From contig NZ_AUFE01000003.1 in assembly GCF_000426345.1 (NCBI RefSeq), positions 124,001 to 188,000 of the forward strand: a stretch of 64,000 bases of DNA, read 5' to 3'. The position numbers and the translations under genes are program-made. Positions 15,507 to 54,407 of the stretch are shown here, piece by piece (position 1 is the stretch's first letter; the number at the start of each line of letters is the position of its first letter). A model generated the notes under the pieces. The model was not told where the DNA came from. It searched no databases and worked only from the letters and a program-made list of their open reading frames with translations. This stretch comes from Cupriavidus phytohabitans (GTDB lineage Bacteria > Pseudomonadota > Gammaproteobacteria > Burkholderiales > Burkholderiaceae).

Positions 15507-15936
15507 GCTGGGGCTCCAGATTTAGGAAAAGCATGGTGTTGGGCTATTTAGCCCGGACTTCGGGCTCGAATCGGTACGCTTCCGTACGAATGGGCTGCGA
15601 GTGCCGGGACGCCTGCAAGGCCCTGGCACGGCGCGTTCCGGGCGGAGAAGCCCCACCTGGAGTTGCCAGGGCAATGCGTGGTCTTCGCGCGGGAAAGCAC
15701 GACGCGACATCCAGGCCCGGGGGCGAGGGCCCTGTCAGGTCTTCTTGCAACAGCGCTACCAGACGAGGCGATGCGCCCTGTCCAAGGGGGCAGCTCCGCC
15801 CGTAGGCGGCACCGATCGAGCGCCGTCACGCGTGCGGGCGTACCCGTTTCTGCGTAACGCTTTCCCCGCATCACTGCATGCGCTCGTGCGTATGTTGCGC
15901 AGAAAATTGGCACGTCCCGCGATCGGAGCGCCGGCT
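15507..15936. other. Intergenic region upstream of the carrier protein gene
   Basis: 430 bases without a convincing gene. It should hold the leftward promoter of the carrier protein operon. It contains one perfect copy of the chromid-origin 16-mer at 15839-15854. Confidence 0.5.
15839..15854 (+). repeat. Distal copy of the origin iteron (exact)
   Basis: CGTACCCGTTTCTGCG, identical to the commonest iteron of the repA origin about 14 kb away. It is the only copy found to the left of parB. Confidence 0.85.
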
Positions 15937-18372
15937 TCAGGCTTTCTCCGCTCCATTGATGACTTGCCTGGTCAATGCCGGGCGCTTCGCTTCCGCCTTG
16001 GGCAAGGGCATGCCCAGATAGGGATTGATGGTATTGAAGTCCGACCGGTTGCTGCGCCGTGGCATGACCCCGTTCAGGATCCCGCCCGCCAGCCGCGCAT
16101 TGGCATGCGCCAGGCGCTTGAGGGTGTCGTCGACCTGGCCCGCCGCCGTCACGTCCGCGCGCACCACCACCAGCGTGGAGCCCGCCAGGTTCGCCACCAG
16201 CGTGGCATCGGCCACGGCCAGCACCGGCGGCGTGTCGACCAGCACCAGGTCGAAGCGGCCCGCGCACAGCCGCAGCGTTTCCGCCAGCGCCGGCAGCATC
16301 AACAGTTCGGACGGATTCGCCGGCGCCGCGCCGCGGTTGAGCAGGAACAGGCCGCTGACCACGCTCGGCCTGACTGCATCGGCGATCGCGGCGCGCCCGG
16401 CCAGCACTTCGGCCAGGCCCGGCTCGACCGGCTGGTCGAACCAGTCCGCCACGCGGCCGCGGCGCAGGTCGGCGTCGATCAGCAGCACGCGCTGGCCGGC
16501 CTCGGCAAACAGCACCGCGAGGTTGACCGCGGTAAAGGTCTTGCCCGCGCTGCTGGCCGGGCTGGTGACCGCCACCACGCAATTGGGCGCATCGCGCAGC
16601 GCGAAGTGCAGCGCCGCGCGCAAGGTGCGCAGCCCCTCCACCGCCAGAGAATGCGGCGCGCGCCGCGCCAGCAGGTACTGGTCGTGCAAGCCCTGGCGCA
16701 GCAGCCGTTCGGCGCGCGCGTGCTCGTCCTCCGGCGCGGCCGCGGTGGCGGCATCGATCACCTCTGTGCCCGGCTCGGGCCAGCCCAGGCGCGCCTCGGT
16801 CGGCAGCGCGAAGCCCGCGGCGATGCCCAGGCGGCGCTTGGTTTCGATCTGGCGCTCGAGCTCGGACTGCTCGTTGCTGAAGGCGATGTCGCCGAGCATG
16901 GCCATGCCAAGCCGCTCTTCGGCATCGGCGGCGCTGGCCACCGACGGGCGCAGGCGCTGGCGCAGGTTGACGCCAGCCACGCCCAGGCACAGCCCGAGCA
17001 GCGCGCCCACGGAAGCGAACGGCCACGTGCCGATCCCGACCGGCGTCACCGGCGCGATCGCCGCGTCGATCACGCGCAGCTGGCTGGAGCTGTCGGACAG
17101 CATCAGCGACAGCTGCTCGACCTTGGTGCGCAGGGTCATGTACATGTCCTCGGCCACCTTGACGTCGCGCGTCAGCGCCACCGATTCGCGCTCGGAGGCC
17201 GACAGGCTTTGCATGCGCGCATCGATCTCGGCACGCTCGCGCGTCATCTGCTGGATCTGGCTGTCGACCGTGCGCACTTCATTGGCCTCGGTGGTGAAGC
17301 GCTGCAGCAGCCGCGTGCGCTCCAGCCGCAGCGCGGCGATCTGGCGCTGGTACTCCATGCTGTTGTTCAGGAACGATTGCGCATCGCGGCTGGGCGCCAG
17401 CGAGCCGGTACGCGCGCGGTAACGCGTCAGCGCCTCTTCCGCGCGCGTGAGCTCGGCCTGCACGCGCGGAAGTTCGTTGGACAGGAAGGCCAGCGTGCCG
17501 GCGGCGTCCTCGCGGCGCTTGGTGGTCTGTCCGTCGATATAGGCGCGCGTGACGCCGTTGACCAGCTCGGCGGCAAGCTGCCGGTCCGCATACTGCCAGC
17601 CCACGCGCACCGTGCCGCCCGGCTGCGCCGGTGCGCCGCCGGGACTCGCGGACATCTGCGCGCCTTCGCTCTCGACCTGCAGGCCCCTGCGCACGGCCTC
17701 GGCGGTGCGCGCGAGATCGTGACGTGTCAGCACGAAGCGCGTGCCGGGCGCGGCCTCGATGCGGTCCACGCGCAGCGTAATGCCGTTGCCGCTGGCGGTC
17801 TCGCCGACACGGCCCTCGAGCAGCAGCACGTCCTGGTCGAAGAGCCGGTAAGCGCCGTCGCGGCGTGCCTCGAACAGCAGGGGATGGTCCACCAGGTCTT
17901 CGGGCACGCTCATGGTGTCGACCACCAGGCGTTCGCCGCCCCAGGCATAGCCCTGGCTTGCGGGCCAGGTCCCGCGCACGTGGCCGGGCGTGGAGAAGCG
18001 GTCCAGCAGCGCGCCCACCAGCGGCGCGCGCAACGGCTGCGCGGTGATATCCAGGCGCAGGCGCTCCACCACTGGCCCCACCACGGCGCGGCTCTTGAGC
18101 AGCCCCGCGTCGAAGCCGGCAGCGCCCTGCGTCTGCGCGACGCTGCGCACGCCGCCGTCGCGCCCCTCCACCTGCACCAGCGCCTGCGCGCGGTATTGCG
18201 GCGGCTCGGACAGCGCCACCAGCGCGCCGACGCCGGCGCCGGCAACGCCCGCGGCAACGATCCAGCCCATGTGGTCCATCAGTGCGCGCGCCTGGCGCGT
18301 GCCGGCGGGCTGAGCTTCGCGCCGGGGGGCCGCACCTTCCGCCGGTGCGCCGGCATATGACAGTCTGCTCAC
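15937..18372 (-). CDS. Wzc/GumC-like chain-length and ATPase protein, second copy
   Basis: 811 residues. A Wzz-type N-terminus carries one membrane helix (WIVAAGVAGAGVGALVALS), a long coiled region follows, then a second helix near TWPFASVGALLGLCLGVAG. The C-terminal BY-kinase-like domain has Walker A TSPASSAGKTF, VLLIDADLRRG and LVLVDTPPVLAVAD. Unlike the first kinase (4272) the tail lacks a tyrosine cluster, having a single Tyr (NPYLGMP). No Wza or Wzb gene is adjacent; a Crp/Fnr regulator is directly upstream on the same strand. It may control polymer length for another glycan or a secondary polymer without Wzb-type phosphorylation control. Confidence 0.87.
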   Translation of the reverse strand: MSRLSYAGAPAEGAAPRREAQPAGTRQARALMDHMGWIVAAGVAGAGVGALVALSEPPQYRAQALVQVEGRDGGVRSVAQTQGAAGFDAGLLKSRAVVGPVVERLRLDITAQPLRAPLVGALLDRFSTPGHVRGTWPASQGYAWGGERLVVDTMSVPEDLVDHPLLFEARRDGAYRLFDQDVLLLEGRVGETASGNGITLRVDRIEAAPGTRFVLTRHDLARTAEAVRRGLQVESEGAQMSASPGGAPAQPGGTVRVGWQYADRQLAAELVNGVTRAYIDGQTTKRREDAAGTLAFLSNELPRVQAELTRAEEALTRYRARTGSLAPSRDAQSFLNNSMEYQRQIAALRLERTRLLQRFTTEANEVRTVDSQIQQMTRERAEIDARMQSLSASERESVALTRDVKVAEDMYMTLRTKVEQLSLMLSDSSSQLRVIDAAIAPVTPVGIGTWPFASVGALLGLCLGVAGVNLRQRLRPSVASAADAEERLGMAMLGDIAFSNEQSELERQIETKRRLGIAAGFALPTEARLGWPEPGTEVIDAATAAAPEDEHARAERLLRQGLHDQYLLARRAPHSLAVEGLRTLRAALHFALRDAPNCVVAVTSPASSAGKTFTAVNLAVLFAEAGQRVLLIDADLRRGRVADWFDQPVEPGLAEVLAGRAAIADAVRPSVVSGLFLLNRGAAPANPSELLMLPALAETLRLCAGRFDLVLVDTPPVLAVADATLVANLAGSTLVVVRADVTAAGQVDDTLKRLAHANARLAGGILNGVMPRRSNRSDFNTINPYLGMPLPKAEAKRPALTRQVINGAEKA

Positions 18373-18459
18373 GGGTACCGCTCCTCAAATGGGATCAGCG
18401 CGGCGTCCTGCGCCGCGCGTGGTCAGCCGCATGCCGCCAGGGGCAGCCGGCAGCGCCGT

Positions 18460-19182
18460 TCAGGCGTTGGCCAGCGCGGGCAGCAGCCGGTCATATTCGC
18501 GCTTGACCAGCTTGTAGCATTCGCAGGAATGCTTCTCCAGGCCGCAGCGGTCCAGTACCGTGATATGGCCGCGGCTGTGGTGGATCAGTCCAAGGTCCTC
18601 CAGCTTGCCCGCGGCCTCGGTCACGCCTTCGCGACGCACGCCGAGCATGTTGGCAATGACCTGCTGCGTGATCACCAGCTCGTTGGAACTGAGCCGGTCG
18701 ATCGCCAGCAGCAGCCAGCGGCACAGCTGCTTGTTCAGCGAGTGGTGGCGGTTGCACGCGGCGGTCTGTGCGATCTGCGTCAGCATCGCCTGCACGTACA
18801 GCAGCGTCACGCGCTGCAGCGTGGGCAGGCGCGGCAGCTCGGCGCGCAGCATGCGTGCGGGGATACGGTAGGCAAGGCCGGGGCTGCGCACTTCGACGCG
18901 GCTGGGCATGGTGTCGCCGCCGGTGACTACCGGGATGCCGACCAGCCCTTCATGGCCGACCGCGGCAATCTCGACGGTCGCGCCGTCTTCGAGCAGCGAC
19001 AGCAGCGAAACCACCGCCGTGGTTGGGAAGTAGACGTGGACGATGCGCTGGCCGGAATCGGTGAGCAGCTCCCCGGCGCGCAGCCGGACCAGCTCGAAAT
19101 GCTGGGCCAGTGTTTCCCACTCGCCACGCGGCAACGCGCTGAGCAGGTGATTGACATGCAGTTCCGACCGATGCGTGATCAT
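18460..19182 (-). CDS. Crp/Fnr-family transcriptional regulator
   Basis: 240 residues from ATG 19182 (an earlier in-frame start at 19203 adds seven residues). The N-terminal cupin-like sensor domain (LRAGELLTDSGQRIVHVYFPTTAVVSLLSLLEDGATVEIAAVGHEG) resembles Crp/Fnr relatives that lack the cAMP contact residues. The C-terminal winged helix is VITQQVIANMLGVRREGVTEAAGKLEDLGLIHHSRGHITVLD. Four cysteines are scattered, but the Fnr N-terminal cluster is absent. It precedes the second Wzc-like gene by 87 bases on the same strand and may regulate it. Its ligand is unknown. Confidence 0.88.
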   Translation of the reverse strand: MITHRSELHVNHLLSALPRGEWETLAQHFELVRLRAGELLTDSGQRIVHVYFPTTAVVSLLSLLEDGATVEIAAVGHEGLVGIPVVTGGDTMPSRVEVRSPGLAYRIPARMLRAELPRLPTLQRVTLLYVQAMLTQIAQTAACNRHHSLNKQLCRWLLLAIDRLSSNELVITQQVIANMLGVRREGVTEAAGKLEDLGLIHHSRGHITVLDRCGLEKHSCECYKLVKREYDRLLPALANA

Positions 19183-24602: not shown

Positions 24603-26309
24603 GTGCCCTCCCCCACTGACCGCCCCGCGCCGTTGCCCATGTTGCCAGGATCACATTCCGTCAGCCTGACCCGCAGCGAATTCGCCGCCGTCCGCGCCTA
24701 TGTGCAAGGCATGCCGGCAGCCATGGTCGTCGGCCGCTATCTGGCCGACGACGGCGATGACGACGACGCCGGTGAATCGGCCCTGCGCACGCTGCTGAGC
24801 CTGCGCGACCGCATGGTCCAGCTGGCGCATCTCCATGGCCGCGCCGATCTGGCCGAGCTGCTGGTGGCCGGTCCGGGCCGTTCCAACCGCGGCATGGATC
24901 GCCGGGTGGACGCGCTGGCGGAACTGGAACGGCTCGGTACAGCGGCACCACGGGCGGAGCATGGTGTGGAATTGTGGTTCGGGCCGTCACTGGCGCGGCG
25001 CCTGCGCCATGCCGAAATTGTTAACATTAAAGCACTTATTGGGCTGACCAACGTCCGCGGCACGGCATGGTGGCGGCGCGTACCACGTATTGGAGCCCTC
25101 GCCGGCCAAGCCATCAACCGCTGGCTGGCAGAGCATCGTGAACTGGTCCGCACGCCCCAGGGCCAGCCCATGCTGGCCGCGCATGTGGGTAACCGCACGC
25201 CACTGACGCGCGGGGCGCTGGCACCAGACATGCCACGCCTGCTGCCGCTGGAATTTCTCGCCAGCGATGCGGAGGCGCCGCCCGCCTGTCCCTTTGCCAG
25301 CGGCGTCGGCATGGTGCGCAAATGGCTGCACGCCAGCACTCCCCCTGCCGGCGCCACGCATGCCGCGTACCGGAAGGAGGCCGAACGGCTGTTGCTGTGG
25401 GCGGCAATCGAGCGCCGCAAGGATCTCGCCGCGTTGGACGAGCAGGACCGCCAGGCATACCTGGCCTTTCTTGCCGACCCACAGCCGGCGGCGCGCTGGT
25501 GCGGACCGCGGGCACCCCGGCAAGTCGGGTCCTGGCGGCCATTTACCGGGCCGCTGGGCGAGGTCAGCCGGCGCCATAGCATGCGTGTCCTGGGCGCCTT
25601 GTGGGCGTGGATGGCGCGCAATGGGTACGACTCGGCCGCCCGGTGGCTGCCAATAGGGGGACCGGCACGGGGTGCGGCGGCGGATATGGGCATGGCGGCC
25701 GCGGCCGGAGATGCGGCATCCGGACTGGACACCGGGAGCGCTGCCTGCCGGGAAGCTGTCGACGACATGGCGCTGGTGCGCTTCACAGCCTGGCTGGAGA
25801 ACGAAGGCAGCCGGCCGGACGGCGTGCGCTACCGGGCCGCGGCCGCGGCGGTCGCGCTGCTGCTGGAATGCCGGCCGCGCTTTGCCGGGCTTGTGGCGCT
25901 GCGCTGGAAAGACCTGCGGATCCTCCACCGGGTGTCCGGAACGAGGACGGAGGAAGCGCCGGACGACGACCGGCTTGCGCTCACCGACACGGCGCTGGCC
26001 GCGCTACGGCGTCACTGGCAAGACCGGGGATTGGACCTGGACGCACCCGCCGCGGCGGATGTGCCCCTGCTCGGCCCGCCCGCCGCGCCGCCCACCCGGC
26101 GGGCGCAGCGCAAGCTCGCCAGCACGGCCTATCCGCCCTATTCGGTGCGCGGGCTGCATGCGCTGCTGTCGGCTGCGATTACCCGCTATCGGAGGCTGGA
26201 TGCCGCCTTTCCGGCCCGGTCGCCACGTGACCTCATTCGCGAGGGGCAGCGTTGCCGGACAGCGTCGGCGTCGGTCGAAGAAGTTGGTACGGGGGGAGAG
26301 TTGCCGTAG
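24603..26309 (+). pseudogene. Tyrosine recombinase (phage-integrase family, DUF3701-type N-terminus), C-terminus damaged
   Basis: The 568-codon frame starts at GTG 24603. The N-terminal part has VRGTAWWRRVPRIGALAGQAINRWL, as in the DUF3701 integrase-like proteins of Ralstonia and Burkholderia relatives, followed by a core-binding domain (HAAYRKEAERLLLWAAIE, HSMRVLGALWAWM). The first catalytic Arg region is present (LLLECRPRFAGLVALRWKDLRI). The second box, normally SPHDLR, reads SPRDLIREGQ, so His and Arg are lost, and the remaining residues to the stop do not resemble the helix with the active-site Tyr. Fragments of similar character appear in other frames to about 26400, consistent with frameshifts. 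It lies next to parB, so a former dimer-resolution or chromid-integration role is conceivable. Confidence 0.65.
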
Positions 26310-26468: not shown

Positions 26469-27482
26469 TCAGAGCAAGGTCTTGTCCAGTCCGAAGCGAG
26501 CCTTGAGCAGCTCGACCAGATCCTCCCGGGCACTACGGTCGCCCAGCTGGACATCGAGGACGACTCGCCCCGAATCCCACTCCTTGATGGTCCCGAGCAA
26601 CTGGCCGCCGTCGGTCCGGATCTTGTATTGCCGGCTGATTTCCTTGATCTTGCGCGCCTTGCCCTCCTGGGCATGCTTGCGGATCGCCTCGACTTCGCGG
26701 CTTGACAGGCCATCGTTGATGATCCGCGCAGCCAGCTCGCGGGTCCGCTCCTCCCCCGCCAACTTGCAGTACAAAGTCAGCTCATACCCGGCGGCGATGC
26801 CGATCGCGCTCGGCCGCTCGCGCATCACGCCAAGCACGGACTCGGGCAGGCGCAACAGCGCCAGCGTCTTGTTGACCGTGCCGGCGGACATCCCGGTCAG
26901 TTCGCAGATTTCTTCTTCCTTCTGGACCTTGCCTTCATCGAGCAGCTGGCGCCAGGCGATCGCATTGTCCAGTGCCGACTGGTCCGAGCGCTGCTCGTTG
27001 AGCATGAACGACAGCCGGTAGAAGTCCAGGTCGCTCAGGTCGTCCTCGACAAAGCACTCCATCTCGAGCTTGCCGGCTGACGCCAGCGCTCGTTTGCGGT
27101 AGTGGCCGTCGATCAGGATGTAGTGGCCGGGACGCGACGTGTCCGGGGCAGCGAGGCCGGGGGTCTTCTGTCCATGCGTGGCGATCGACGCCGCACGCTC
27201 CTGCACGATGGCGGGATCATAGATCCGGCGGGCATTCAGCGGATTGTCATGAAGCTGCGCCAGCGGAATCCGCACCAGCTGCCGGCCAGTCGCCATCTCG
27301 CCAGCACTTTCAGCGCTGAAAGCGGCAGCGGCATCGTTGGTCCTGCCCTGCAGCAGCCCATTCGGATGCTGCGAAATCGCTGCCTCGGCCCGGGCAAACC
27401 GGTCCAGCGTGTCGCTGCGGTGCTTCTCTGCCACCATGCCGGCGAGCATGCCGGCCTTGAGGCTTTTCAGTTTTGTAGCCAT
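26469..27482 (-). CDS. parB: Chromid partition protein ParB
   Basis: 337 residues. The N-terminal ParB/Spo0J nuclease-like domain includes VRIPLAQLHDNPLNARRIYD and HYILIDGHYRKRALASAG (the box equivalent to GERRxRA). The central helix-turn-helix DNA-binding part is EEEICELTGMSAGTVNKTLALLRLPESVLG. A C-terminal dimerisation domain follows. It starts 3 bases after the parA stop, so parA-parB form an operon. A parS-like palindrome lies inside its own coding sequence (27307-27322), and a second lies before parA. It should load onto parS and, with ParA, segregate this replicon. Confidence 0.94.
   Translation of the reverse strand: MATKLKSLKAGMLAGMVAEKHRSDTLDRFARAEAAISQHPNGLLQGRTNDAAAAFSAESAGEMATGRQLVRIPLAQLHDNPLNARRIYDPAIVQERAASIATHGQKTPGLAAPDTSRPGHYILIDGHYRKRALASAGKLEMECFVEDDLSDLDFYRLSFMLNEQRSDQSALDNAIAWRQLLDEGKVQKEEEICELTGMSAGTVNKTLALLRLPESVLGVMRERPSAIGIAAGYELTLYCKLAGEERTRELAARIINDGLSSREVEAIRKHAQEGKARKIKEISRQYKIRTDGGQLLGTIKEWDSGRVVLDVQLGDRSAREDLVELLKARFGLDKTLL
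27307..27322. promoter_or_regulatory. Putative parS site 1 (inside parB)
   Basis: CTTTCAGCGCTGAAAG is a perfect 16-bp palindrome, identical to the copy before parA (28156-28171) and not seen elsewhere in the window. A repeated perfect 16-bp palindrome restricted to the parAB locus is the usual appearance of chromid parS sites. Confidence 0.8.
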
Positions 27483-27485
27483 GCC

Positions 27486-28145
27486 TTATTGCTCAATCAA
27501 AGACAACACTTCGTCGACCATCATGTCGACCTCCTGTACCGCCTCACGCGCCCCGGCAACGCCATGGACAGTACAGCCGATCGCCTGGCATTCGCGGAAG
27601 GCCGAGCGCGATCCAATCATCGAATTCAGAAGCGGCACCTCGCCATCGTCTCCCAGGATCTCGATCGCCTGCCGCGCGATCGACACGCGCCGCTGCACCA
27701 TATTGGCCATCACCCGGATCAGCAAGGTTTCATTCTGGACTTGCGCATGTTGTGCCAGCGTTTTTGCTGCGACCGCCGCCCAGAGGTCCGGAGGCGATGG
27801 CACCACCGGGATGATGGCAAGGTCGGAGATCAGCAGCGCACTGGACGGCGCCGCCGAATGGACTGCAGGCGGACAGTCGACAACGATGTAATCGTAATCG
27901 TGCACAAACTTCCGAACTTCTCGGTGCATGGCGCCGCCCGATGGCGCGAGGCCGATCACCGACGCGGGGAACGGGCGCTCATCGCTGGCCTGGGCGGCCC
28001 AGCGGGTGGCGGTGCCTTGTTCGTCCATGTCAACCAACATGGAGCGGGCACCCCGCAGGCCCAGCGTTCCCGCCAGGTGCATGCTGACCGTGGTCTTTCC
28101 GCAACCACCTTTCTGGTTGAAGACGGTGATGATTTTGGCTGCCAC
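27486..28145 (-). CDS. parA: Chromid partition ATPase ParA
   Basis: 219 residues from GTG 28145, with GAGAGG about 6 bases upstream. Deviant Walker A QKGGCGKTT at 11-19, Walker A-prime ARSMLVDMDEQGTATRW and Walker B DYIVVDCPP. It lacks an N-terminal helix-turn-helix, so it is the short (type Ib-like) ParA, and autoregulation is unlikely to be through a ParA DNA-binding domain. It works with ParB to move the replicon over the nucleoid. A parS-like palindrome lies 11 bases upstream of its start codon and could let ParB repress the operon. Confidence 0.95.
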   Translation of the reverse strand: MAAKIITVFNQKGGCGKTTVSMHLAGTLGLRGARSMLVDMDEQGTATRWAAQASDERPFPASVIGLAPSGGAMHREVRKFVHDYDYIVVDCPPAVHSAAPSSALLISDLAIIPVVPSPPDLWAAVAAKTLAQHAQVQNETLLIRVMANMVQRRVSIARQAIEILGDDGEVPLLNSMIGSRSAFRECQAIGCTVHGVAGAREAVQEVDMMVDEVLSLIEQ

Positions 28146-28155: not shown

Positions 28156-28171
28156 CTTTCAGCGCTGAAAG
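28156..28171. promoter_or_regulatory. Putative parS site 2 (upstream of parA)
   Basis: A second exact CTTTCAGCGCTGAAAG palindrome just before the parA ribosome site. It could serve as both centromere and operator of the parAB operon. Confidence 0.8.
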
Positions 28172-28831: not shown

Positions 28832-29980
28832 TCAGCCCAGCTTGCGCACACTGGTACGGGACGGCTGCAGGATCAGCGCCTTGGACGAATCCGCATCGAC
28901 CTTTGCGCCAGGATAGACCACCAGCACGTCCTTCAGCGCCTTGCGGAACAGCGCGCGGAACTTGCGCTCGCTTTCGGTTTCGGTGCCAAACTGCATTTGC
29001 AGGGCTTCCCAGGGGATCTCGGTGCGTCGCTGGATCGTGAAGAACCGGTAGGTCAGCCACGAATAAACGTCCAGGGCGAATGGCGACTGCTTCAGCGCCT
29101 TCAGTGCGCGCATGTCCACCGGTACCGGGCGGTTGACCAGTTCGTTGAAAAACGGCTCGGACAGCACCACAAAACTCTCGAACATCGAGCCCTGCCCCGG
29201 CTGCATCGGGTCCCACCAAGTGGACAATTGGTCGGCCAGCAGGTAGCCGACGCGGTCGATCGATAACGGCTCGTGGTTCGGGTTCTGGTTCTGGCTCGGC
29301 GTGGACTTGTTCTGCACGATCGCAATGGTCGCGGAAAACAGCCGGATCATCTGCTGGCGCACCAGCGTCATGGTGCCGCGCTTGCCGCCGGTAGCCATCG
29401 GGATACCGAGGTTGTACATGAACTCGGACAACGAATTGCCCAGCGAGATGCGCCGGTCTTCCACCGTCCCGGTGAACTCGCCCCGCTTCTTCTTCGCCAT
29501 GATCTCCTTGCCGATCCAGGCAAGCATCAAGCGCGGATAGGAGCCATAGGGATAGCCCAGCGAGACCGTCTCCGACACCAGCTTCTGGCGGCCATTGGCC
29601 GCGCGTTCGGAGCGTTGCTGCGTGAAGTAGCCGGGCTGGATCATCAGCGAGATATTGCCGCTGGTGCGCGTCCATACCGGCGGCGCGCCCTTGGGCGCCC
29701 GATATGGCAGCGTGACCTGGACGCTGGCGCGGCTCAGGAAGCCAACTTCGCCGCTTTGCCAGGCGTCCTCGCGTTCCATGGCTTGCGCCTCGTCAAACAG
29801 GCGCTGGAATTTCTCGGACGGAACCAGGCTGTTCTCGTTGCCGGGAACAATGATGCGGGAGGGTTCGGCGTCCATGTCGAGGACACTTCGATCCCCCGTG
29901 GCGGCCGGGGAGCGTTTGATGGGCATATTGGCGTGCTTCGGATTACCCGCCTTTGTACTCGAAGCCGCAAAGGTTGTCAC
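28832..29980 (-). CDS. repA: Replication initiation protein RepA of the chromid
   Basis: 382 residues from GTG 29980; an ATG at 29926 (MPIKRSPAATGDRS) is an alternative. It matches the plasmid-encoded RepA family: VGFLSRASVQVTLPYRAPKGAP, ETVSLGYPYGSYPRLMLAWIGKEIM, ISLGNSLSEFMYNLGIP, SFVVLSEPFFNELVNRPVPVDMRALKALKQSPFALDVYSWLTYRFF. These form the winged-helix initiator that binds iterons. The adjacent origin carries many copies of one 16-mer, the expected RepA target. One copy (29980-29995) touches the GTG start, so RepA probably represses itself. No good ribosome site precedes either start, consistent with low expression. Confidence 0.94.
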   Translation of the reverse strand: MTTFAASSTKAGNPKHANMPIKRSPAATGDRSVLDMDAEPSRIIVPGNENSLVPSEKFQRLFDEAQAMEREDAWQSGEVGFLSRASVQVTLPYRAPKGAPPVWTRTSGNISLMIQPGYFTQQRSERAANGRQKLVSETVSLGYPYGSYPRLMLAWIGKEIMAKKKRGEFTGTVEDRRISLGNSLSEFMYNLGIPMATGGKRGTMTLVRQQMIRLFSATIAIVQNKSTPSQNQNPNHEPLSIDRVGYLLADQLSTWWDPMQPGQGSMFESFVVLSEPFFNELVNRPVPVDMRALKALKQSPFALDVYSWLTYRFFTIQRRTEIPWEALQMQFGTETESERKFRALFRKALKDVLVVYPGAKVDADSSKALILQPSRTSVRKLG

Positions 29981-29995
29981 GCAGAAACAGGTACG
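29980..29995 (-). promoter_or_regulatory. Iteron overlapping the repA start (probable autoregulatory operator)
   Basis: CGCAGAAACAGGTACG is the complement of the iteron variant CGTACCTGTTTCTGCG. It abuts the GTG start of repA, so RepA bound here would block its own expression. Confidence 0.7.
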
Positions 29996-30203
29996 CTGAG
30001 GCGCTGTCCTGGTTGCCGGGGTTTTGTTATCCGGGGACTCTCATGACTGGCAGCTGGGGGGCGAACGGTGGGCAACCCGCAAGGGTTGTCCACGGTGCGC
30101 AACCCTGTGACTACCAGTAAACGATACCAATACGGGTTAACTACTTGTAAACCGTATACGTGAAGTTCAGCGCCTTGATTCATAAGGGGAAAAACCACCC
30201 CTG

Positions 30204-31315
30204 CGAACCCGATTCTGCGGACAAACGTACTCGATTCTGCGAAGGGCCGAACCCGAATCTGCGACGCCCCGAACCTGTATCTGCGAACCGCGCGTACTGG
30301 TTTCTGCGGGGATAACCCCGTGTTTCCACAGGCTTTTCCACAACGGCAGCATTGCAGAGCGTACCCGTTTCTGCGGCGCCCCAGGCGGTATACGCCGTTT
30401 ACACCGGATTTACCGCTGGATTGCACGGCCGGGAGGCCGGCGGCCCGGGTTATCCACGCAGAAAAAGGTTCGACCCTGGGGCCGCGCTCATCCGCCTGAT
30501 GCTGGCAGCGTACCCATTTCTGCGACGGATGACCCTAATCCGTACCCGTTTCTGCGCCGCGAAGAAAAAACACCTTGCCTCCGGCTCGGCGTACCTGTTT
30601 CTGCGGCGTACCCGTTTCTGCGTCAGAGCCGCCCGTACGCCGGAGTTCGGTCTGCGTACCCGTTTCTGCGTGCCCGACCCCAGGGCGGCATGGATGCATC
30701 CGTACCCATTTCTGCGTTGATAAAAGGGGTCTGCGAATAGACGCACCGGCAAGTTTCCATTATATATCGGCCAATCATGAAAAGCTAGCGCTCACACTCA
30801 ACGTATACGTCGAGATACCGCCTTTTGAGTGGGCGTACCCGTTTCTGCGGGGAACCCCGGCTAAGCTTCGCCCCAGCCAGGCCGACGCCCCTGGGAAACC
30901 CCGTACCCCGTACCCGTTTCTGCGTGTGAACGTGGCGTGCAAAAACGAACGAGGCGTACCTGTTTCTGCGGCGGCTCGTTTCAGACCTTTGAGGGATCGG
31001 GTCTTGTGCGCTGCAATAGGAGGCGTACCCGTTTCTGCGTAGCATCCGAAGCCTGTTTGTGTGGATATCTCAGCGCCGGGCCGTCACTGGCGCACCATTG
31101 ATCTGGCGGGCCCGGAAACGTGGCGATGCCAGGCGTACCTGTTTCTGCGAAGGGCGCGAGGACACACGGGGTGGGGCCCAGACCCGGGCGTACCCGATTC
31201 TGCGTCCCCGCCGGGGTGTGACGAGGCTCTATGGAGGCGTGGCGTACCCGTTTCTGCGTAAGTCGACCACGACCATTCCCGGATTCCTGCGCAGCAAGGC
31301 GTACCTGTTTCTGCG
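30204..31315 (+). repeat. RepA iteron array (21 copies of a 16-mer)
   Basis: Consensus CGTACCCGTTTCTGCG. Exact copies start at 30360, 30541, 30607, 30655, 30834, 30909, 31024 and 31243. CGTACCTGTTTCTGCG copies start at 30590, 30955, 31134 and 31300. CGTACCCATTTCTGCG copies start at 30509 and 30701. Weaker copies start at 30204, 30226, 30248, 30270, 30293 and 31189, and a reversed weak copy at 30457. All but 30457 point the same way. The left block (30204-30308) is degenerate at 22-bp or near-22-bp spacing, while the rest are irregularly spaced. Confidence 0.92.
30450..30458 (+). promoter_or_regulatory. DnaA-box-like site
   Basis: TTATCCACG differs from the TTATCCACA consensus by one base and overlaps the reversed iteron at 30457. 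Companion candidates are TTTTCCACA at 30334-30342 and TTGTCCACG at 30086-30094. Confidence 0.6.
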
Positions 31316-33628: not shown

Positions 33629-33644
33629 CGTACCCAATTCTGCG
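33629..33644 (+). repeat. Distal origin-type iteron (variant)
   Basis: CGTACCCAATTCTGCG, two differences from the main iteron; it combines changes that occur separately in the origin array. Confidence 0.75.
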
Positions 33645-33674: not shown

Positions 33675-33690
33675 CGTACCTGTTTCTGCG
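33675..33690 (+). repeat. Distal origin-type iteron
   Basis: CGTACCTGTTTCTGCG, identical to four copies in the origin array and to the operator at the repA start. Confidence 0.85.
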
Positions 33691-33786: not shown

Positions 33787-33802
33787 CGTACCCGTTTCTG
33801 CG
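33787..33802 (+). repeat. Distal origin-type iteron (exact)
   Basis: CGTACCCGTTTCTGCG, exact consensus. Confidence 0.85.
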
Positions 33803-36841: not shown

Positions 36842-37637
36842 GGCGTCTCCTCCTTGTGGAAAAAAGTGCCCGCCGGGGGACGGAGCACAAATCCGCGCGG
36901 GCATGCCGGCTGGCTGCCCCTCTTGATTCCGCGCCGGCTCCGGTCAGGCGCGCCGCTTTCCGGCCGGGCGCCTGCAGGCCGCGCGCGTGCAGGCCGGACC
37001 GCTGGCCCCCCGCGCTCCGCCGGGGCATGGTGCGCTGGCCGTGTCTAGTTGTGCCGGCTCGACCCGCGCGCGCGGATAGGGCAGCAGTGGCGGCGAAAGC
37101 AGGTCCGTCACCGTAGGCGGCGGGCCCGCCAACCGGTATGAGCGCCGGCGCGCCGTCATGCGTGAAGGCGGTTGACGCATGGCTGGTCTCTCTCCGCAGT
37201 GGTAGCTCGATGATCCGGACGCGCGCGGCGTCCCCTGCGGATGCTGAGCGACAAGTGTGCCAATGGCCGCAAAGGCTTGTGCCATGCGGGTTTGCGGCCC
37301 GCCCGGGGGGCGCTGTACGCGGCCGCGGCGGCGGCGCCGGGCCATTCGGTTTCGCTACTGCAACGCGTGCGGCGAGCGCCACCGCTGGCCGCGCCTGCGC
37401 ATGTGCGCGCGTGGCCGCCTGACACGCACGCCGGGTGCGGGATAGCGCGCCCAGGCAGCGGCGCATTCCCCGCACTGCACCGGGTTGCATCTTTGAAACC
37501 GGAGTTACATCAGCCTTGCATTCGCGTAACACGGGGAACACCGACGAGCCAGCGCACTGCCCGCGCGGCGCCGGGGGCAGCGCACGGCGCAGCACGCAGA
37601 AACGGGTACGCAGCGGCGGCAGCGGCTGCCGCGATCG
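36842..37637. other. Intergenic region without a recognised gene
   Basis: About 800 bases. Frames are long because of the high GC content but carry no ribosome sites or family features. One iteron-type 16-mer is at 37595. Confidence 0.45.
37595..37610 (-). repeat. Distal origin-type iteron (exact, reversed)
   Basis: CGCAGAAACGGGTACG is the exact complement of the consensus iteron. A weaker relative (TTACCCGTTCCTGCG) is at 37995-38009. Confidence 0.85.
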
Positions 37638-44692: not shown

Positions 44693-44708
44693 CGTACCCA
44701 TTTCTGCG
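44693..44708 (+). repeat. Distal origin-type iteron (variant A)
   Basis: CGTACCCATTTCTGCG, identical to origin copies at 30509 and 30701. It lies between the MFS and AraC genes. Confidence 0.85.
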
Positions 44709-44834
44709 TAACCCCGGCCGCGCGGCTGGCGGTATAGTCGAGCGTTGCGCCGCGGACTTCCGGCCAACTTTCGTCGCTGAAAGTTGCCGCCACGCTCCGT
44801 CCCGAAACGCCTCACTGCCGATCCGCCCCGCCAC

Positions 44835-45725: not shown

Positions 45726-46010
45726 ATCGCCGCAGGCCCCTGCCGGGCACGGGCTGGCGCGGCGGCGCGGGGGCCTTTCCAGATTGCGCGGGAAACCAAT
45801 TGGCGCCTGGGTTGTCACCTGTACTGTGGCGTGTGCCTGGCCTTTGTCGGTGATCGTCTGACATCCTGCGCTCAAAAGACATCAATTCCTGGTAAGTTTT
45901 GGCGGATCATCGGTTATCGGCGAGGCGCCGCATTCCCGTGACCGCACGCAGAAACGGGTACGCCCCACCCGCGCCGCCGCAAATCAACAACCCCAAACGG
46001 AGTCGCCCTC
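45726..46010. other. Spacer upstream of mscS
   Basis: 285 bases. It contains an exact iteron-type 16-mer (45947-45962), about 50 bases before the mscS start. No gene seen. Confidence 0.5.
45947..45962 (-). repeat. Distal origin-type iteron (exact, reversed)
   Basis: CGCAGAAACGGGTACG, exact complement of the consensus, 49 bases before the mscS ATG. Confidence 0.85.
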
Positions 46011-48861: not shown

Positions 48862-48877
48862 CGCAGAAATGGGTACG
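48862..48877 (-). repeat. Distal origin-type iteron (variant A, reversed)
   Basis: CGCAGAAATGGGTACG, complement of CGTACCCATTTCTGCG, in the middle of the edd/zwf divergent control region. Confidence 0.85.
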
Positions 48878-48975
48878 CTTGCCTCGCCAAGCCGTAGCGA
48901 CTCACGTAAACTGGCCGCAACACGGCCCGCCATCGGGCGCTGGCCGCGACAACTCGAATCCTCAAGGAGCGCAGG

Positions 48976-50457: not shown

Positions 50458-50472
50458 ACCAGAGGAAACGAC

Positions 50473-51153
50473 ATGCGCCTGTTCGAACATCCCACCCCGA
50501 CGGACCAGGCCGAGGCCCTGGCCATCTCGATCAGCAATGCGCTCGAACTCGCCATCCGCGTCAACGGCTGGGCGGTGCTGGCGGTATCCGGCGGACGCTC
50601 GCCGGTGCCGATGTTCGAGCGGCTGCGCTACCGCCCGCTGCGCTGGGAAGCGGTGACGGTGACGCTGGTCGACGAACGCGTGGTGCCGCCCGACCATCCC
50701 GACAGCAATGCCGCGCTGGTGCGCGCGCACCTGCTGCGCGAGGCCGCCGGCAGTGCCGCCTTTATCCCGCTGGTGGCCGATGCACAGGACGTGGCCGACC
50801 CGGCCGCGGCGGTAGCGCGCGCGAATCGGGCGTTCCGCCAGCCTGACGTGGTGGTGCTCGGCATGGGTGAGGATGGCCATACCGCGTCGCTGTTCCCGGA
50901 CGCGCCCGAACTGCAGGACGCGCTGAGCGATCCGCAGCCGGCCTACCTGCTGACGCATCCGGGCACCGCGCCGCATGCGCGCATCACGCTGAACCTGGCC
51001 GCGCTGCTGGCGGCCGAGCGCGCATTCCTGTCCGTCACTGGCGAGGCCAAGGCCCAGGTGCTCCAGCGCGCGCTGCAGGGGCCGACGCCCGCGCTGCCGG
51101 TGAGCCTGGTGGCGTCGCGCCACCGGCACGGTTTCGATGTGTTCAAGGCCTGA
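50473..51153 (+). CDS. pgl: 6-phosphogluconolactonase
   Basis: 226 residues with GAGGAAA before the ATG. It is DevB type: LAVSGGRSPVPMFERL, TLVDERVVPPDHPDSNAALVRAHLL and DVVVLGMGEDGHTASLFPDAPEL with conserved Asp and His. It hydrolyses 6-phosphogluconolactone to 6-phosphogluconate. It lies 15 bases after zwf and before glk in one operon. Confidence 0.95.
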   Translation: MRLFEHPTPTDQAEALAISISNALELAIRVNGWAVLAVSGGRSPVPMFERLRYRPLRWEAVTVTLVDERVVPPDHPDSNAALVRAHLLREAAGSAAFIPLVADAQDVADPAAAVARANRAFRQPDVVVLGMGEDGHTASLFPDAPELQDALSDPQPAYLLTHPGTAPHARITLNLAALLAAERAFLSVTGEAKAQVLQRALQGPTPALPVSLVASRHRHGFDVFKA

Positions 51154-51171
51154 ATTCTGACTGAAGGGGAC

Positions 51172-52236
51172 GTGACCGACGCCATGGCTGACACCGCCTC
51201 CATACCCTCGACCGCCACCGCCACCGCCACCGCCACCGCCACCTTCCCACGCCTGCTCGGCGATGTCGGCGGCACCAACGTGCGCTTCGCGCTGGAGACC
51301 GCGCCCATGCAGATCGGCCCGGTGACCGCGCTCAAGGTCGCCGATTTTCCTTCGCTCGAAGCCGCGTTGCGCCAGTTCCTGGACGGCCTGGCCGGCACCG
51401 GCCAGCCCTTGCCGCGCCATGCTGCGATCGGGCTGGCCAACCCGGTCACCGGCGACCAGGTCAGGCTGACCAACCACAACTGGTCGTTCTCGATCGACGG
51501 CATGCGCCGCGCGCTCGGCCTGCAGACGCTGGTGGCGCTGAACGACTTCACCGCGCTGGCGCTGGCCTTGCCGCACCTGCCGGCGGACGGCCTGGCGCGG
51601 GTGCGCGCCGGCACCGCGATCCTGAACCCGCCGCTGGCGCCGCTGGCGCTGGTGGGACCTGGCACGGGGCTGGGCGTGTCGGGGCTGGTGCCGGCCCCGG
51701 GCGGGCAGGTGGTGGCGCTGGCCGGGGAGGGTGGCCATATCGAGCTGATGCCGGTTACCGACGATGAATGGGTGGCTTGGCGCGCGGCCCATCGCCAGGT
51801 CGGACGGGTGTCCGCGGAACGGCTTTTGTCAGGCGCGGGGCTGTCGCAGATCCATGCCGCGCTGGCCGCAGAAACGGGTACGCTTTTGCTCGCGCCGCTG
51901 CAGCCGGAGCAGGTTACCGACGGCGCTTTCCAGCGCAACGACCCGCTGTGCCAGCGCACCATGACGGTGTTCTTCGGACTGCTGGGCTCGGTCGCGGCCG
52001 ATATCGCGCTGGTGCTGGGCGCGCGCGGCGGCGTCTACCTGGGTGGCGGCATCCTGCCGCGCTTCGTGCCGGCGCTGCAGGCCTCTGCCTTCACCGAGCG
52101 CTTTGTCGCCAAGGGCCGCATGCGCGGGTGGCTCGAAGACGTGCCGGTCCATGTCATCACCGCGCGCCACCCGGCGCTGCCCGGGCTGGCGCGGGCGCTG
52201 GCCGAACGCCTGGACCGTAGGGCGGGGAACGCCTAG
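51172..52236 (+). CDS. glk: Glucokinase
   Basis: 354 residues from GTG 51172 (ATG 51184 possible). Phosphate-binding LLGDVGGTNVRFAL, the glucose-contact segment LTNHNWSFSIDGMRRAL, VALNDFTALA with the catalytic Asp, GPGTGLGVSGLV and GEGGHIELMP match Glk-type glucokinases. An N-terminal STATATATATATF is made by an ACCGCC hexanucleotide repeat (51211-51243) and would be slippage-prone. The coding sequence also contains an exact origin-type iteron. It phosphorylates glucose with ATP, feeding zwf. Confidence 0.95.
   Translation: MTDAMADTASIPSTATATATATATFPRLLGDVGGTNVRFALETAPMQIGPVTALKVADFPSLEAALRQFLDGLAGTGQPLPRHAAIGLANPVTGDQVRLTNHNWSFSIDGMRRALGLQTLVALNDFTALALALPHLPADGLARVRAGTAILNPPLAPLALVGPGTGLGVSGLVPAPGGQVVALAGEGGHIELMPVTDDEWVAWRAAHRQVGRVSAERLLSGAGLSQIHAALAAETGTLLLAPLQPEQVTDGAFQRNDPLCQRTMTVFFGLLGSVAADIALVLGARGGVYLGGGILPRFVPALQASAFTERFVAKGRMRGWLEDVPVHVITARHPALPGLARALAERLDRRAGNA
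51211..51243 (+). repeat. Hexanucleotide repeat at the start of glk
   Basis: ACCGCC repeated five times plus ACC, encoding Thr-Ala pairs. Unit length six keeps the frame, so changes would alter only linker length. Confidence 0.9.
51867..51882 (-). repeat. Origin-type iteron inside glk
   Basis: CGCAGAAACGGGTACG, exact complement of the consensus, within the glk coding sequence (encodes AETGT). It is the only distal copy inside a recognised gene. Confidence 0.8.
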
Positions 52237-52238
52237 CC

Positions 52239-52934
52239 ATGCGCGTGCTGTTGGTGGAAGACGACGCCATGATCGGCGACAGCGTCAGGCAGGCGCTGCG
52301 GCAGGAGGGCTTCACCGTCGACTGGGTGCGCGATGGCGATGCGGGCCTGGCCGCGGCCACGTCGTCGCAGGAAGGCGAAGCGTGCTACGACCTGGTGCTG
52401 CTCGACCTCGGCCTGCCGCGCCGCCCGGGGCTTGACGTGCTGCGCACGCTGCGCACGCGCGGCGTGCCAACGCCGGTGCTGATCCTGACCGCGCGCGACG
52501 CGGTAGCCGACCGCGTCGCGGGCCTCAATGCCGGCGCCGACGACTACCTGGTCAAGCCCTTCGACCTGCAGGAACTGGCCGCGCGCATGCACGCACTCGC
52601 GCGCCGCGCCGCGGGCCGGGCCGAGCCGCTGGTGAGCTATGGCGAGATCGTGCTCAACCCGTCCACGCGCGAGGTCACGCACCGCGGCGAGCCGGTACGG
52701 CTGTCGGCGCGCGAGTTCGCGCTGCTGTCGGCGCTGATGTCGCGGCCGGGCAAGGTGTGGTCGGTGCCGCAGCTGCAGGAGCGCCTCTACGGCTGGGACG
52801 ACGAGGTCGGCAGCAATACCGTAGAGGTCTATATCCACGCGCTGCGCAAGAAGTTCGGCGCCGCGCTGATCCGCAATATCCGCGGCGTGGGCTATGTGGT
52901 GCCGCGCCTGGATGGCGAGGGAGAGCCCGCCTGA
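52239..52934 (+). CDS. OmpR/QseB-type response regulator
   Basis: 231 residues. The receiver has Asp8/Asp9, phosphoacceptor Asp56 (LVLLDLGLPRRPG), Thr and Lys (LTARD, LVKPFDLQEL). The C-terminal winged helix is AREFALLSALMSRPGKVWSVPQLQERLYGWDDEVGSNTVEVYIHALRKKFG. It starts 2 bases after the glk stop and overlaps the kinase start (ATGA), so it is co-transcribed with the zwf-pgl-glk genes and may control carbohydrate or carboxylate uptake genes. The closest general type is TctD/QseB. Confidence 0.93.
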   Translation: MRVLLVEDDAMIGDSVRQALRQEGFTVDWVRDGDAGLAAATSSQEGEACYDLVLLDLGLPRRPGLDVLRTLRTRGVPTPVLILTARDAVADRVAGLNAGADDYLVKPFDLQELAARMHALARRAAGRAEPLVSYGEIVLNPSTREVTHRGEPVRLSAREFALLSALMSRPGKVWSVPQLQERLYGWDDEVGSNTVEVYIHALRKKFGAALIRNIRGVGYVVPRLDGEGEPA

Positions 52935-54262
52935 TGCGCTCGATCCAGCGAACCCTGCTGTGGTGGCTGGCCGCGGGACTGCTCGCCGGCATTGCCATTG
53001 CCACCGTGCTGATCTACGGCCAGGCGCGCCAGGAAGCCAATGCGCTGTTCGACTACCAGATGAAGCAGATGGCCGCGGCGCTGCCGAGCCGCTTTGCCGA
53101 CCCGGTGGCGCCGCCCTTCATCGGCTCGCCCGGCGACCTGACGCATGCCGACGAGGACGTCGTCATCCATATCTGGGACGGCTCCGGGCGCAGCCTGTAC
53201 CTGTCGCATTCGCACCCGGCGCTGCCCGCGCGTGCCGAGCTGGGCTTCTCCAACGTGACCACGCAGCAGGGCGAATGGCGGCTGTACAGCATGCAGCTCG
53301 GGCCCACCGTGGTGCAGATCGCGCAGCCGATGAGCGCGCGCCGCACGCTGGCCGCGCGCATGGCGCTGCGTACCGTGGCGCCGCTGCTGTTGCTGCTGCC
53401 GCTGCTGGGCTGGCTGGTATGGATGGCGGTGGGCCGCGGCCTGCGGCCGCTGCGCGAGATCGCCGCCGAAGTACGCGCGCGCGACGCCACCACGCTGGAA
53501 CCGCTTGCGGTGCGACAGATGCCGGACGAGATTGCGCCGCTCAGCGTCGCGCTGAACCAGTTGCTGGCTCGGCTCTCGCACGCCATCGACACGCAGCGCG
53601 CCTTCGTGGCCGACGCCGCCCACGCGCTGCGCACGCCGCTGGCCGCGCTGCAGTTGCAGGCCCAGCTGGTCGAGCGTGCCGACAACGGCGCGGCGCGCGA
53701 CGAGGCCGTGGCGAAGCTGCGCCAGGGGCTGGAGCGGCTGACCCACCTCGTCACGCAGCTGCTGACTCTGGCGCGGCAGGAGCCCGGCGCCGCCACGCCG
53801 CCGCGCGAGCCTGTCGAGCTGCGCGCGCTGGCCGCCGGCGTGGTGGCGGAACTGGCCCAGGCCGCGCTGGACCGCGATATCGACCTGGGCGTGGATGGCG
53901 ACGCCAACGCGGCGCCGGCGATCGTGTGTGGTGATGCCGATGCCTTGCGCATCCTGCTGACCAACCTGCTGGACAACGCGCTGGCCTATATCCCGGCCGG
54001 CAGCCGCATCGACGTGCACGTGGCACGCGGGGCCGACGGGCGTTCGGTCGAACTGGTGGTCAGCGACAACGGCCCCGGCATTGCGGTCGGGGAGCGCGAG
54101 CGTGTGTTCGACCGCTTCTACCGCCTGCCCGAGGCGCCGACCGGCGGCAGCGGGCTGGGCCTGGCGATCGTGGCGGAGATCGCGCAGTCGCACGGGGCGC
54201 GGGTGGCGCTGGAGGACGCGCGGCCGGGGCTGCGCGTCAGGGTCACATTTCCGGCCGCCTGA
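52934..54262 (+). CDS. Sensor histidine kinase partnered with the response regulator at 52239
   Basis: 442 residues from ATG 52934. Two membrane helices (about 8-30 and 148-172) flank a roughly 115-residue periplasmic sensor. A HAMP-like segment follows. The H-box is FVADAAHALRTPLAALQ with His230, N-box LTNLLDNALAYIPAGS, G1 VSDNGPGI, and G2 GGSGLGLAIV. It is TctE/QseC-like; the signal is unknown. Translationally coupled to its regulator. Confidence 0.93.
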   Translation: MRSIQRTLLWWLAAGLLAGIAIATVLIYGQARQEANALFDYQMKQMAAALPSRFADPVAPPFIGSPGDLTHADEDVVIHIWDGSGRSLYLSHSHPALPARAELGFSNVTTQQGEWRLYSMQLGPTVVQIAQPMSARRTLAARMALRTVAPLLLLLPLLGWLVWMAVGRGLRPLREIAAEVRARDATTLEPLAVRQMPDEIAPLSVALNQLLARLSHAIDTQRAFVADAAHALRTPLAALQLQAQLVERADNGAARDEAVAKLRQGLERLTHLVTQLLTLARQEPGAATPPREPVELRALAAGVVAELAQAALDRDIDLGVDGDANAAPAIVCGDADALRILLTNLLDNALAYIPAGSRIDVHVARGADGRSVELVVSDNGPGIAVGERERVFDRFYRLPEAPTGGSGLGLAIVAEIAQSHGARVALEDARPGLRVRVTFPAA

Positions 54263-54278
54263 GCGCTGGCGAGAGTCA

Positions 54279-54294
54279 CGCAGAAATGGGTACG
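54279..54294 (-). repeat. Distal origin-type iteron (variant A, reversed)
   Basis: CGCAGAAATGGGTACG, 17 bases after the kinase stop. Confidence 0.85.
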
Positions 54295-54391
54295 CTTTGC
54301 TGGTGCGACGCAATGCCGTGCGGCGCGCGAGCCATGCCCAGCAGTCATCATCGGACGCTCGGGCAGGCAGTAGCGGTTACGCAGACGGGCA

Positions 54392-54407
54392 CGCAGAAAT
54401 GGGTACG
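54392..54407 (-). repeat. Distal origin-type iteron (variant A, reversed)
   Basis: CGCAGAAATGGGTACG, the rightmost copy found, about 24 kb from the repA start. Confidence 0.85.

What the first reader, a model, noticed from the sequence alone, without database searches (positions are those of the whole stretch)
15839..54407. Origin iterons dispersed over about 38 kb around a chromid origin
Seen: the 16-mer CGTACCCGTTTCTGCG and its close variants occur 21 times in the ~1.1 kb origin and 11 more times outside it, at 15839, 33629, 33675, 33787, 37595, 44693, 45947, 48862, 51867, 54279 and 54392. A 16-mer that is exact or nearly so this often cannot be chance. Ten of the distal copies lie to the right of repA and one to the left, nearly all between genes. 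The six copies between 45.9 and 54.4 kb are all reversed. Known: RepA-like initiators bind origin iterons, and in Vibrio chromosome 2 distal initiator sites control copy number by titration or handcuffing. Inference: here the initiator may be controlled by a dispersed site set, possibly also affecting transcription of flanking genes such as edd/zwf.
Basis: partly seen in the sequence, partly recalled or inferred. Interest (0 to 1): 0.8.

Follow-up and report, generated by a model that had tools for sequence, protein, structure and literature searches.

The report
Conserved initiator sites ringing chromid origin
The second chromosome of this bacterium carries about twenty extra copies of its replication-initiator motif scattered on both sides of its origin; [quoted passage not shown]

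Summary
The 16-mer occurs 35 times in the window (3 mismatches or fewer; 0.68 expected), and distal copies continue on both sides of the origin over about 150 kb of the 239-kb contig. In seven complete-looking chr2 replicons 131 of 140 distal copies lie within 125 kb of ori2. Flank-defined orthologous gaps keep a copy in 106 of 110 cells against 5 of 562 control cells. Across 299 family genomes, all 56 with the RepA orthologue have 16 or more copies and the other 243 have 5 or fewer. Ralstonia keeps a similar layout with mostly different neighbours, which argues against control of edd/zwf. Burkholderia chr2, with another initiator family and iteron, has an analogous layout; three RepA-family plasmids have none. 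Best reading: RepA sites acting as titration or handcuffing sinks that double soon after initiation, as shown for Vibrio chrII. RepA binding is inferred. Origin iterons, Vibrio distal sites and a distal Burkholderia c2 cluster are in print; my searches found no description of the Cupriavidus/Ralstonia distal set.

The parts
29980..31315 (+). ori2 iteron array: 22 copies of the 16-mer (<=3 mismatches), 20 on + and 2 on - (29980, 30457)
30204..30308 (+). five iterons at 22-23 bp spacing with 2-3 mismatches each (30204, 30226, 30248, 30270, 30293): probable replication-active, phased, weaker iterons near an AT-rich block (56% AT at 30100-30199)
   Evidence: (3-5 phased copies in 50 of 50 loci scanned, mean 2.23 mismatches vs 0.91 for the other array copies)
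29980..29995 (-). single reversed iteron about 50 bp upstream of the repA start: possible autoregulatory operator (inference)
28832..29926 (-). repA, initiator, Pfam RepA_C PF04796
   Evidence: E 1.9e-32; start chosen by eye
27486..28145 (-). parA (ParA-type ATPase)
26469..27482 (-). parB (ParB HTH PF17762)
15839..15854 (+). distal iteron, exact; orthologous gap keeps a copy in 1 of 2 cells (there in the other orientation)
33629..33644 (+). distal iteron (2 mismatches), cluster downstream of the permease gene
   Evidence: cluster kept in 37 of 37 cells and in Ralstonia
33675..33690 (+). distal iteron, same cluster
33787..33802 (+). distal iteron, same cluster, exact
37595..37610 (-). distal iteron, exact; kept in 30 of 30 flank-defined cells
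44693..44708 (+). distal iteron, 59 bp from a parS-like palindrome at 44768; kept in 2 of 2 cells
45947..45962 (-). distal iteron, exact; kept in 2 of 2 cells
48862..48877 (-). distal iteron between edd and zwf; kept in 4 of 4 cells
51867..51882 (-). distal iteron inside the glucokinase coding sequence, exact; kept in 5 of 5 cells
54279..54294 (-). distal iteron; its gap keeps copies in 4 of 4 cells
54392..54407 (-). distal iteron, same gap
27307..27322 (.). perfect 16-bp palindrome CTTTCAGCGCTGAAAG, candidate parS (inference)
28156..28171 (.). second perfect copy of the candidate parS, upstream of parA
44768..44783 (.). degenerate candidate parS (2 mismatches), 59 bp from the distal iteron at 44693

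Best explanation
The distal 16-mers are binding sites of the chromid initiator RepA and belong to the replication control of ori2. The origin has a core of five phased, weaker iterons where RepA would open the DNA, a control block of 16 closer-to-consensus copies, one copy before repA, and about 20 further near-consensus copies scattered, in Cupriavidus, mostly over some 40 kb on one side and 110-120 kb on the other. After ori2 fires, the forks soon double the scattered copies; these then soak up free RepA (titration) and/or pair with origin-bound RepA (handcuffing), so ori2 cannot re-fire in the same cycle. Shown here: positions, enrichment round ori2, conservation, coupling to RepA, intergenic placement. 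Inferred: RepA binding, titration/handcuffing, the timing benefit.
For: Same motif as the array beside repA. Of 299 family genomes, all 56 with the RepA orthologue (one cut at a contig end) carry 16-43 copies; the other 243, including one Cupriavidus genome without it (G298), carry 0-5. In seven chr2 replicons 131 of 140 distal copies lie within 125 kb of ori2, 6-14% of the replicon, and their number is steady (21, 20, 23, 19, 22, 17, 18) in replicons of 1.8-3.9 Mb, though six of the seven are one genus. 106 of 110 flank-defined orthologous gaps keep a copy (4 cells count a genome twice) against 5 of 562 control cells. At 37595 core identity is 0.99, flanks 0.55, over 32 sequences chosen because they have the site. 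The copy inside glucokinase ranks 2 of 1047 windows for conservation, and the one amino-acid change seen leaves a permitted iteron variant. Ralstonia keeps a similar set beside mostly different genes. Three Burkholderia chr2-size records with another iteron (in the one checked, a Rep3-type initiator): all 30 distal copies lie within 20 kb of the array or in one block about 150-210 kb away. Three plasmids of the same RepA family: 0 distal copies. Titration by distal sites is demonstrated for Vibrio chrII (PMC3937223, passages).
Against: No binding, copy-number or timing data here. A few copies conserved in place lie far from ori2: one about 650 kb (G244), 750 kb (G003) and over 2 Mb (G001) away, another 250-320 kb (G001, G003); early doubling would not help there. 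Titration needs neither fixed positions nor orientations, yet 102 of 106 keep orientation; this may be mere inheritance. Single copies could be too weak to titrate. Four of 110 cells lack a copy; CH34 lacks one and has one in the opposite orientation. In Ralstonia 10 of 34 distal copies overlap genes called by my script. The plasmid control is only three small plasmids.
Confidence: 0.62

Rival explanations
1. Architectural role: RepA (perhaps with ParB at nearby parS-like palindromes) bridges the scattered iterons to the origin array, folding or positioning the ori2 domain for segregation; replication control is secondary.
For: Sites flank ori2 on both sides and keep position and orientation. 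A parS-like palindrome (<=2 mismatches) lies 59 bp from the 44693 copy, 47, 48 and 83 bp from the copy at the matching distance from ori2 in G002, G145 and G244, and 8 bp from a distal iteron in two Ralstonia genomes at another place. Hi-C of C. necator shows wide ori2 contacts (PMC13342612, passages).
Against: Most distal iterons have no parS-like neighbour, the G003 counterpart of 44693 among them; the Hi-C passage speaks of contacts with chromosome 1, not within the ori2 domain; number is steadier than position between the two genera.
Confidence: 0.2
2. RepA doubles as a transcription regulator of neighbouring genes (such as edd, zwf, glk) through these sites.
For: Some copies lie in divergent gaps, e.g. 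between edd and zwf; gaps conserved in Cupriavidus.
Against: Tandem, convergent, divergent and coding contexts all occur; of 14 intergenic gaps 4 are convergent, 7 tandem, 3 divergent. Several copies sit between two gene 3' ends. Apart from parB-parA-repA-ori-permease few neighbours are shared with Ralstonia, yet G074 has 17 distal copies.
Confidence: 0.07
3. Relics: copies left by duplication or mobile repeats, or neutral drift of origin fragments.
For: Stray copies exist on short or plasmid-like contigs and in a phage-like gene.
Against: Flanks of different copies show no shared sequence beyond the 16-mer by eye; orthologous copies survive where flank identity is 0.55; 106 of 110 vs 5 of 562.
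Confidence: 0.02
4. The set serves mainly to time ori2 against chromosome 1, with a crtS-like partner on chromosome 1.
For: Vibrio has such a site (PMC11711613, passages); three genomes (G001, G244, G293) carry one exact 16-mer on the large contig without RepA.
Against: G001 and G244 share one copy inside a coding, phage-like gene, G293's has other flanks; G145, G002, G003 and G074 have none at 0 mismatches. A crtS-like site need not resemble an iteron, so this is not excluded.
Confidence: 0.05

Closest known systems
[quoted passage not shown] PMC3937223, passages read)
   Same: Origin-type iterons outside the origin, on the chromid, near ori2, so duplicated early; there shown to lower origin copy number and read as titration sites.
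   Different: Different initiator; about 20 copies here rather than six sites; on both sides, as single copies or groups of up to four; no second site class looked for; sequence evidence only.
Burkholderia cenocepacia c2 iterons (PMC4948915, passages read; a table caption tells of a second c2 iteron cluster 140 kb from the origin and others throughout the genome)
   Same: A chromid of the same family with iterons away from the origin; seen here in three chr2-size records.
   Different: Rep3-type initiator and unrelated iteron; a compact far block plus a few near copies.
Origin iterons of Cupriavidus/Ralstonia chr2 (PMC2864759, PMC6379261, PMC10986519, passages read)
   Same: This motif at the origin; at least 12, 20 and 12 copies reported, read as RepA sites.
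   Different: The passages I read describe origin copies only, no distal ones.
E. coli datA and genome-wide DnaA sites (as described in PMC3937223, passages)
   Same: Initiator sites outside the origin that limit re-initiation.
   Different: DnaA and ATP hydrolysis; datA is one locus.

Membership tests
Iteron-controlled RepA replicon | Initiator gene next to repeated iterons | tested here: met
   RepA PF04796 beside 22 iterons
Iteron-controlled RepA replicon | Helically phased tandem iterons of about 22 bp | tested here: met
   3-5 phased copies in 50 of 50 loci scanned
Iteron-controlled RepA replicon | DnaA boxes and AT-rich stretch near the phased iterons | tested here: met
   five DnaA-like boxes at <=1 mismatch to TT(A/T)TNCACA between 30322 and 31068; AT 0.56 at 30100-30199
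Iteron-controlled RepA replicon | Initiator binds the iterons | not testable with these tools
   only co-occurrence here; PMC10986519 calls the motif essential for RepA binding, citing a reference I did not see
Distal initiator titration sites (Vibrio chrII / datA type) | Origin-type sites outside the origin, enriched near it | tested here: met
   131 of 140 within 125 kb
Distal initiator titration sites (Vibrio chrII / datA type) | Bound by the initiator; lower origin copy number in trans, relieved by extra initiator | not testable with these tools
   needs ChIP/EMSA and copy-number assays
RctB system of Vibrio proper | RctB-type initiator | tested here: not met
   Pfam gives PF04796 only; no direct comparison with RctB was made
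RctB system of Vibrio proper | Second class of inhibitory sites (29/39-mers) | not tested
   no search made
crtS-type checkpoint | One conserved initiator site on chromosome 1 | tested here: not met
   tested only for an iteron-like site: no conserved copy
Dispersed parS centromere cluster | Palindromic ParB site | tested here: not met
   the 16-mer is not palindromic (sequence); a separate palindrome is the parS candidate
Dispersed mobile repeat (REP/MITE) | Longer shared repeat or flanks | tested here: not met
   40-bp flanks of the window copies and strays look unrelated by eye

The most novel reading that the evidence does not exclude
Seeding the neighbourhood of a plasmid-type origin with extra initiator sites is a repeated step in turning a plasmid into a chromosome: at least three initiator types (RctB in Vibrio, Rep3 in Burkholderia chr2, RepA_C in Cupriavidus/Ralstonia chr2) have each acquired their own distal iterons, while the three small plasmids of the RepA_C family looked at have none, and in Cupriavidus/Ralstonia selection holds the number of sites (about 20) rather than their address.
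Probability: 0.4. Interest if true: 0.8.

Novelty: new variant of a known kind. Interest (0 to 1): 0.62.

Why it matters
How plasmid-derived chromids came to fire once per cell cycle is little known outside Vibrio. Here is a sequence-defined, conserved set of candidate control sites in Cupriavidus, a genus with a tractable laboratory species (C. necator H16), plus a set of different design in Burkholderia. It gives sites to delete and binding to map, and suggests a general route by which a plasmid origin is tamed.

Tried and rejected
Transcription control of edd/zwf: rejected as main function. crtS-like iteron on chromosome 1: none conserved; the G001/G244 copy lies in a coding gene that looks phage-like by eye. 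Mobile-repeat origin: flanks unrelated by eye. Strays of the window's own genome: C18:61453 is a conserved site whose orthologues L174, L094 and L098 lie on RepA-bearing contigs; C81, C117 and C119 lie on contigs of 9-18 kb, C117 in a long open frame with relatives in G298. G298, a Cupriavidus without RepA orthologue, has 5 copies, but also lacks the permease gene next to ori2, so a replaced origin and an incomplete assembly cannot be told apart; I do not lean on it. Of six parS consensuses recalled from memory five gave no hit at 2 mismatches or fewer and a loose sixth gave five imperfect hits, not followed. A PDB sequence search with RepA gave nothing meaningful. Literature searches; none listed a description of distal iterons in Cupriavidus or Ralstonia; supplementary files and most subscription journals were not searchable. 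Gene positions come from my own codon-usage caller, not from an annotation. Draft relatives G004-G007 and the odd 4.7-Mb record of G001 were left out of the distance table.
Full report
WHAT IS THERE. The window is bases 124001-188000 of contig C3 (239,074 bases) of a 7.58-Mb draft genome. RepA is 99% identical to that of C. necator A5-1 and other Cupriavidus, so this is a Cupriavidus second chromosome. repA (PF04796) sits with parA and parB. Beyond the window the copies go on: with a degenerate form (CGTACCNRWTTCTGCG, no mismatch) contig C3 has 21 distal copies from 43511 to 192173, 9 left of the window, 11 in it and 1 to its right. Five, not six, copies between 45.9 and 54.4 kb are reversed.

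ORIGIN ANATOMY. In 50 of 50 loci scanned (L031-L080) 3-5 iterons stand in phase at 22-23 bp spacing; they depart more from consensus (231 copies, mean 2.23 mismatches) than the other array copies (807, mean 0.91). Both samples were selected by a mismatch limit. One reversed copy lies about 50 bp before the repA start. This looks like an active core, a control block and an operator; those roles are inference from iteron plasmids in general (recalled).

DISTRIBUTION. Distal copies per chr2 (degenerate pattern, 0 mismatches): 21 (G002), 20 (G145), 23 (G244), 19 (G293), 22 (G003), 17 (G074, Ralstonia) (positions typed) and 18 in CH34, counted by me from the list. Within 125 kb of ori2: 20, 19, 22, 18, 19, 15 and 18, that is 131 of 140, in 6-14% of the replicon. 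The spread is uneven: in G002, G145, G244 and G003 about 25-40 kb on one side and 110-120 kb on the other, plus single outliers. The large contig without RepA has no such match in G145, G002, G003 and G074, and one each in G244, G293 and G001; the G001 and G244 copies are one orthologous coding site, G293's is another. Smaller contigs of G000, G001, G002 and G003 also carry single copies. G001's RepA-bearing record (4.7 Mb) has further scattered copies and, like the drafts G004-G007, is not in the table.

COUPLING TO RepA. In one sample of 299 family genomes (same handles in both searches), 56 have the RepA orthologue (39 Cupriavidus; 16 Ralstonia, one cut at a contig end; 1 of a third genus; genus names of the unnamed g-groups inferred from RepA identity) and carry 28-43, 26-35 and 16 copies; the other 243 carry 0-5 (my count from its table and tally).

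CONSERVATION. For 16 gaps or genes with distal copies I looked for the flanking proteins in 71 other stretches (21 genome pieces, 50 loci); 47 held at least one adjacent pair. Of 110 cells 106 contain a copy at 1 mismatch or fewer, 102 of these in the same orientation; 4 cells count two genomes twice (L045 = G002, L077 = G003); 5 further cells were dropped because the flanks lay too far apart or overlapped. Misses: two at gap 2, one each at gaps 6 and 7. The same procedure on 144 gaps without a copy gave 5 of 562 cells. Most test cells (67 of 110) come from the two gaps nearest to ori2 on the permease side. In CH34, not in that count, 11 gaps had both flanks on one stretch: 9 keep a copy (one in the opposite orientation), 1 is ambiguous (a 1-mismatch hit in an 8.7-kb interval), 1 lacks it; 5 gaps could not be judged. 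At 37595, 32 sequences (window and 31 loci) give core identity 0.99 and flank identity 0.55; 5 of the 36 loci tried had no hit in the search interval, one of them (L031) with a copy just outside it. The copy inside glucokinase ranks 2 of 1047 16-base windows of that gene over six genomes; in G002 a Thr-to-Met change turns it into another permitted variant.

GENE CONTEXT. 19 of 21 distal copies on C3 are intergenic where 16% of the sequence is (P 1e-13). By gap: 4 convergent, 7 tandem, 3 divergent; convergent excess P about 0.035, divergent deficit P 0.17. Some copies are squeezed between two gene ends, e.g. 25 and 19 bp away at C3:101676. Ralstonia G074 shares parB, parA, repA, the origin and the permease with 4 trailing copies (3-4 in the Cupriavidus counterpart gap at most). 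In the 72 kb of G074 examined, its other genes gave only four weaker hits (31-58% identity) on the 239-kb contig, at places that do not correspond; yet it has 13 more distal copies, all on the par side. So the sites follow the origin, not the genes. In the Ralstonia stretches 24 of 34 distal copies are intergenic, in the Cupriavidus stretches 100 of 113.

OTHER CHROMIDS AND PLASMIDS. PMC4948915 prints a Burkholderia c2 iteron. In three records of 2.4-3.2 Mb (filed as plasmids; taken here for chr2) its pattern (1 mismatch allowed) gives 11, 10 and 10 copies at the array and 7, 9 and 14 elsewhere; all 30 lie within 20 kb of the array or in one block about 150-210 kb away. The far block lies in homologous DNA in the three. 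The gene beside the array, checked in W01 only, is Rep3-type (PF01051, PF21205), not PF04796. Three plasmids with RepA relatives (38, 65 and 94 kb; 33-45% identity) have 6-10 iterons within 1.6 kb of repA and none elsewhere at 2 mismatches.

PARS. A perfect palindrome CTTTCAGCGCTGAAAG occurs at 27307 and 28156; all 50 loci L031-L080 have 2-4 copies (2 mismatches allowed). A degenerate copy lies 59 bp from the 44693 iteron, and 47, 48 and 83 bp from the iteron at the matching distance in G002, G145 and G244, but none beside the G003 counterpart; in Ralstonia G006 and G074 one lies 8 bp from another distal iteron (edge-to-edge gaps computed by me). ParB binding is a guess.

MECHANISM. For Vibrio chrII, PMC3937223 (passages) shows that distal RctB sites near ori2 lower origin-plasmid copy number, relieved for most by more RctB, and argues that their early doubling helps prevent re-initiation. 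The present set fits that logic: near ori2, close to consensus, number steady, addresses free between genera. The far conserved copies (250 kb to over 2 Mb from ori2) do not fit it well and remain unexplained. Whether RepA binds, and whether it acts by titration, handcuffing or folding, is not shown here; PMC10986519 calls the origin motif essential for RepA binding, citing work I did not see.

PRIOR ART AND NOVELTY. Origin iterons of this motif: PMC2864759 (at least 12), PMC6379261, PMC10986519 (passages). Distal sites: Vibrio (passages of PMC6090056 and PMC3937223) and a caption for Burkholderia c2. I found no print of the Cupriavidus/Ralstonia distal set. Hence: new variant of a known kind, with strong conservation evidence and a possible general rule.

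Noticed in passing
window 27307-27322 and 28156-28171: Perfect 16-bp palindrome, two copies at parA/parB, found in all 50 relatives' loci scanned (2-4 copies each, <=2 mismatches): probable parS of the chromid, with degenerate copies next to some distal iterons in both genera.
   Followed up: partly
L085, L094, L098, L174 position 4001: One iteron conserved at the same intergenic place far from ori2 (about 650 kb in G244, 750 kb in G003, over 2 Mb in G001), unexplained by the early-doubling idea.
   Followed up: partly
L087 position 4001; L195 and L198 position 1501: The 16-mer lies inside a very long open frame on a 9-kb contig, with relatives in G298 that also carry it; possibly mobile DNA.
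   Followed up: partly
G298: A genome placed in the same genus without the chr2 RepA orthologue or the permease beside ori2 and with only 5 iterons: replaced origin or missing sequence.
   Followed up: partly
L089 and L173 position 4001: An exact iteron inside a coding, phage-like gene on the large RepA-free contig of two Cupriavidus genomes, encoding a QKRVR stretch.
   Followed up: no
window 24639-26309: Gene with PF12482 (phage integrase protein) beside the parB-parA-repA cluster.
   Followed up: no
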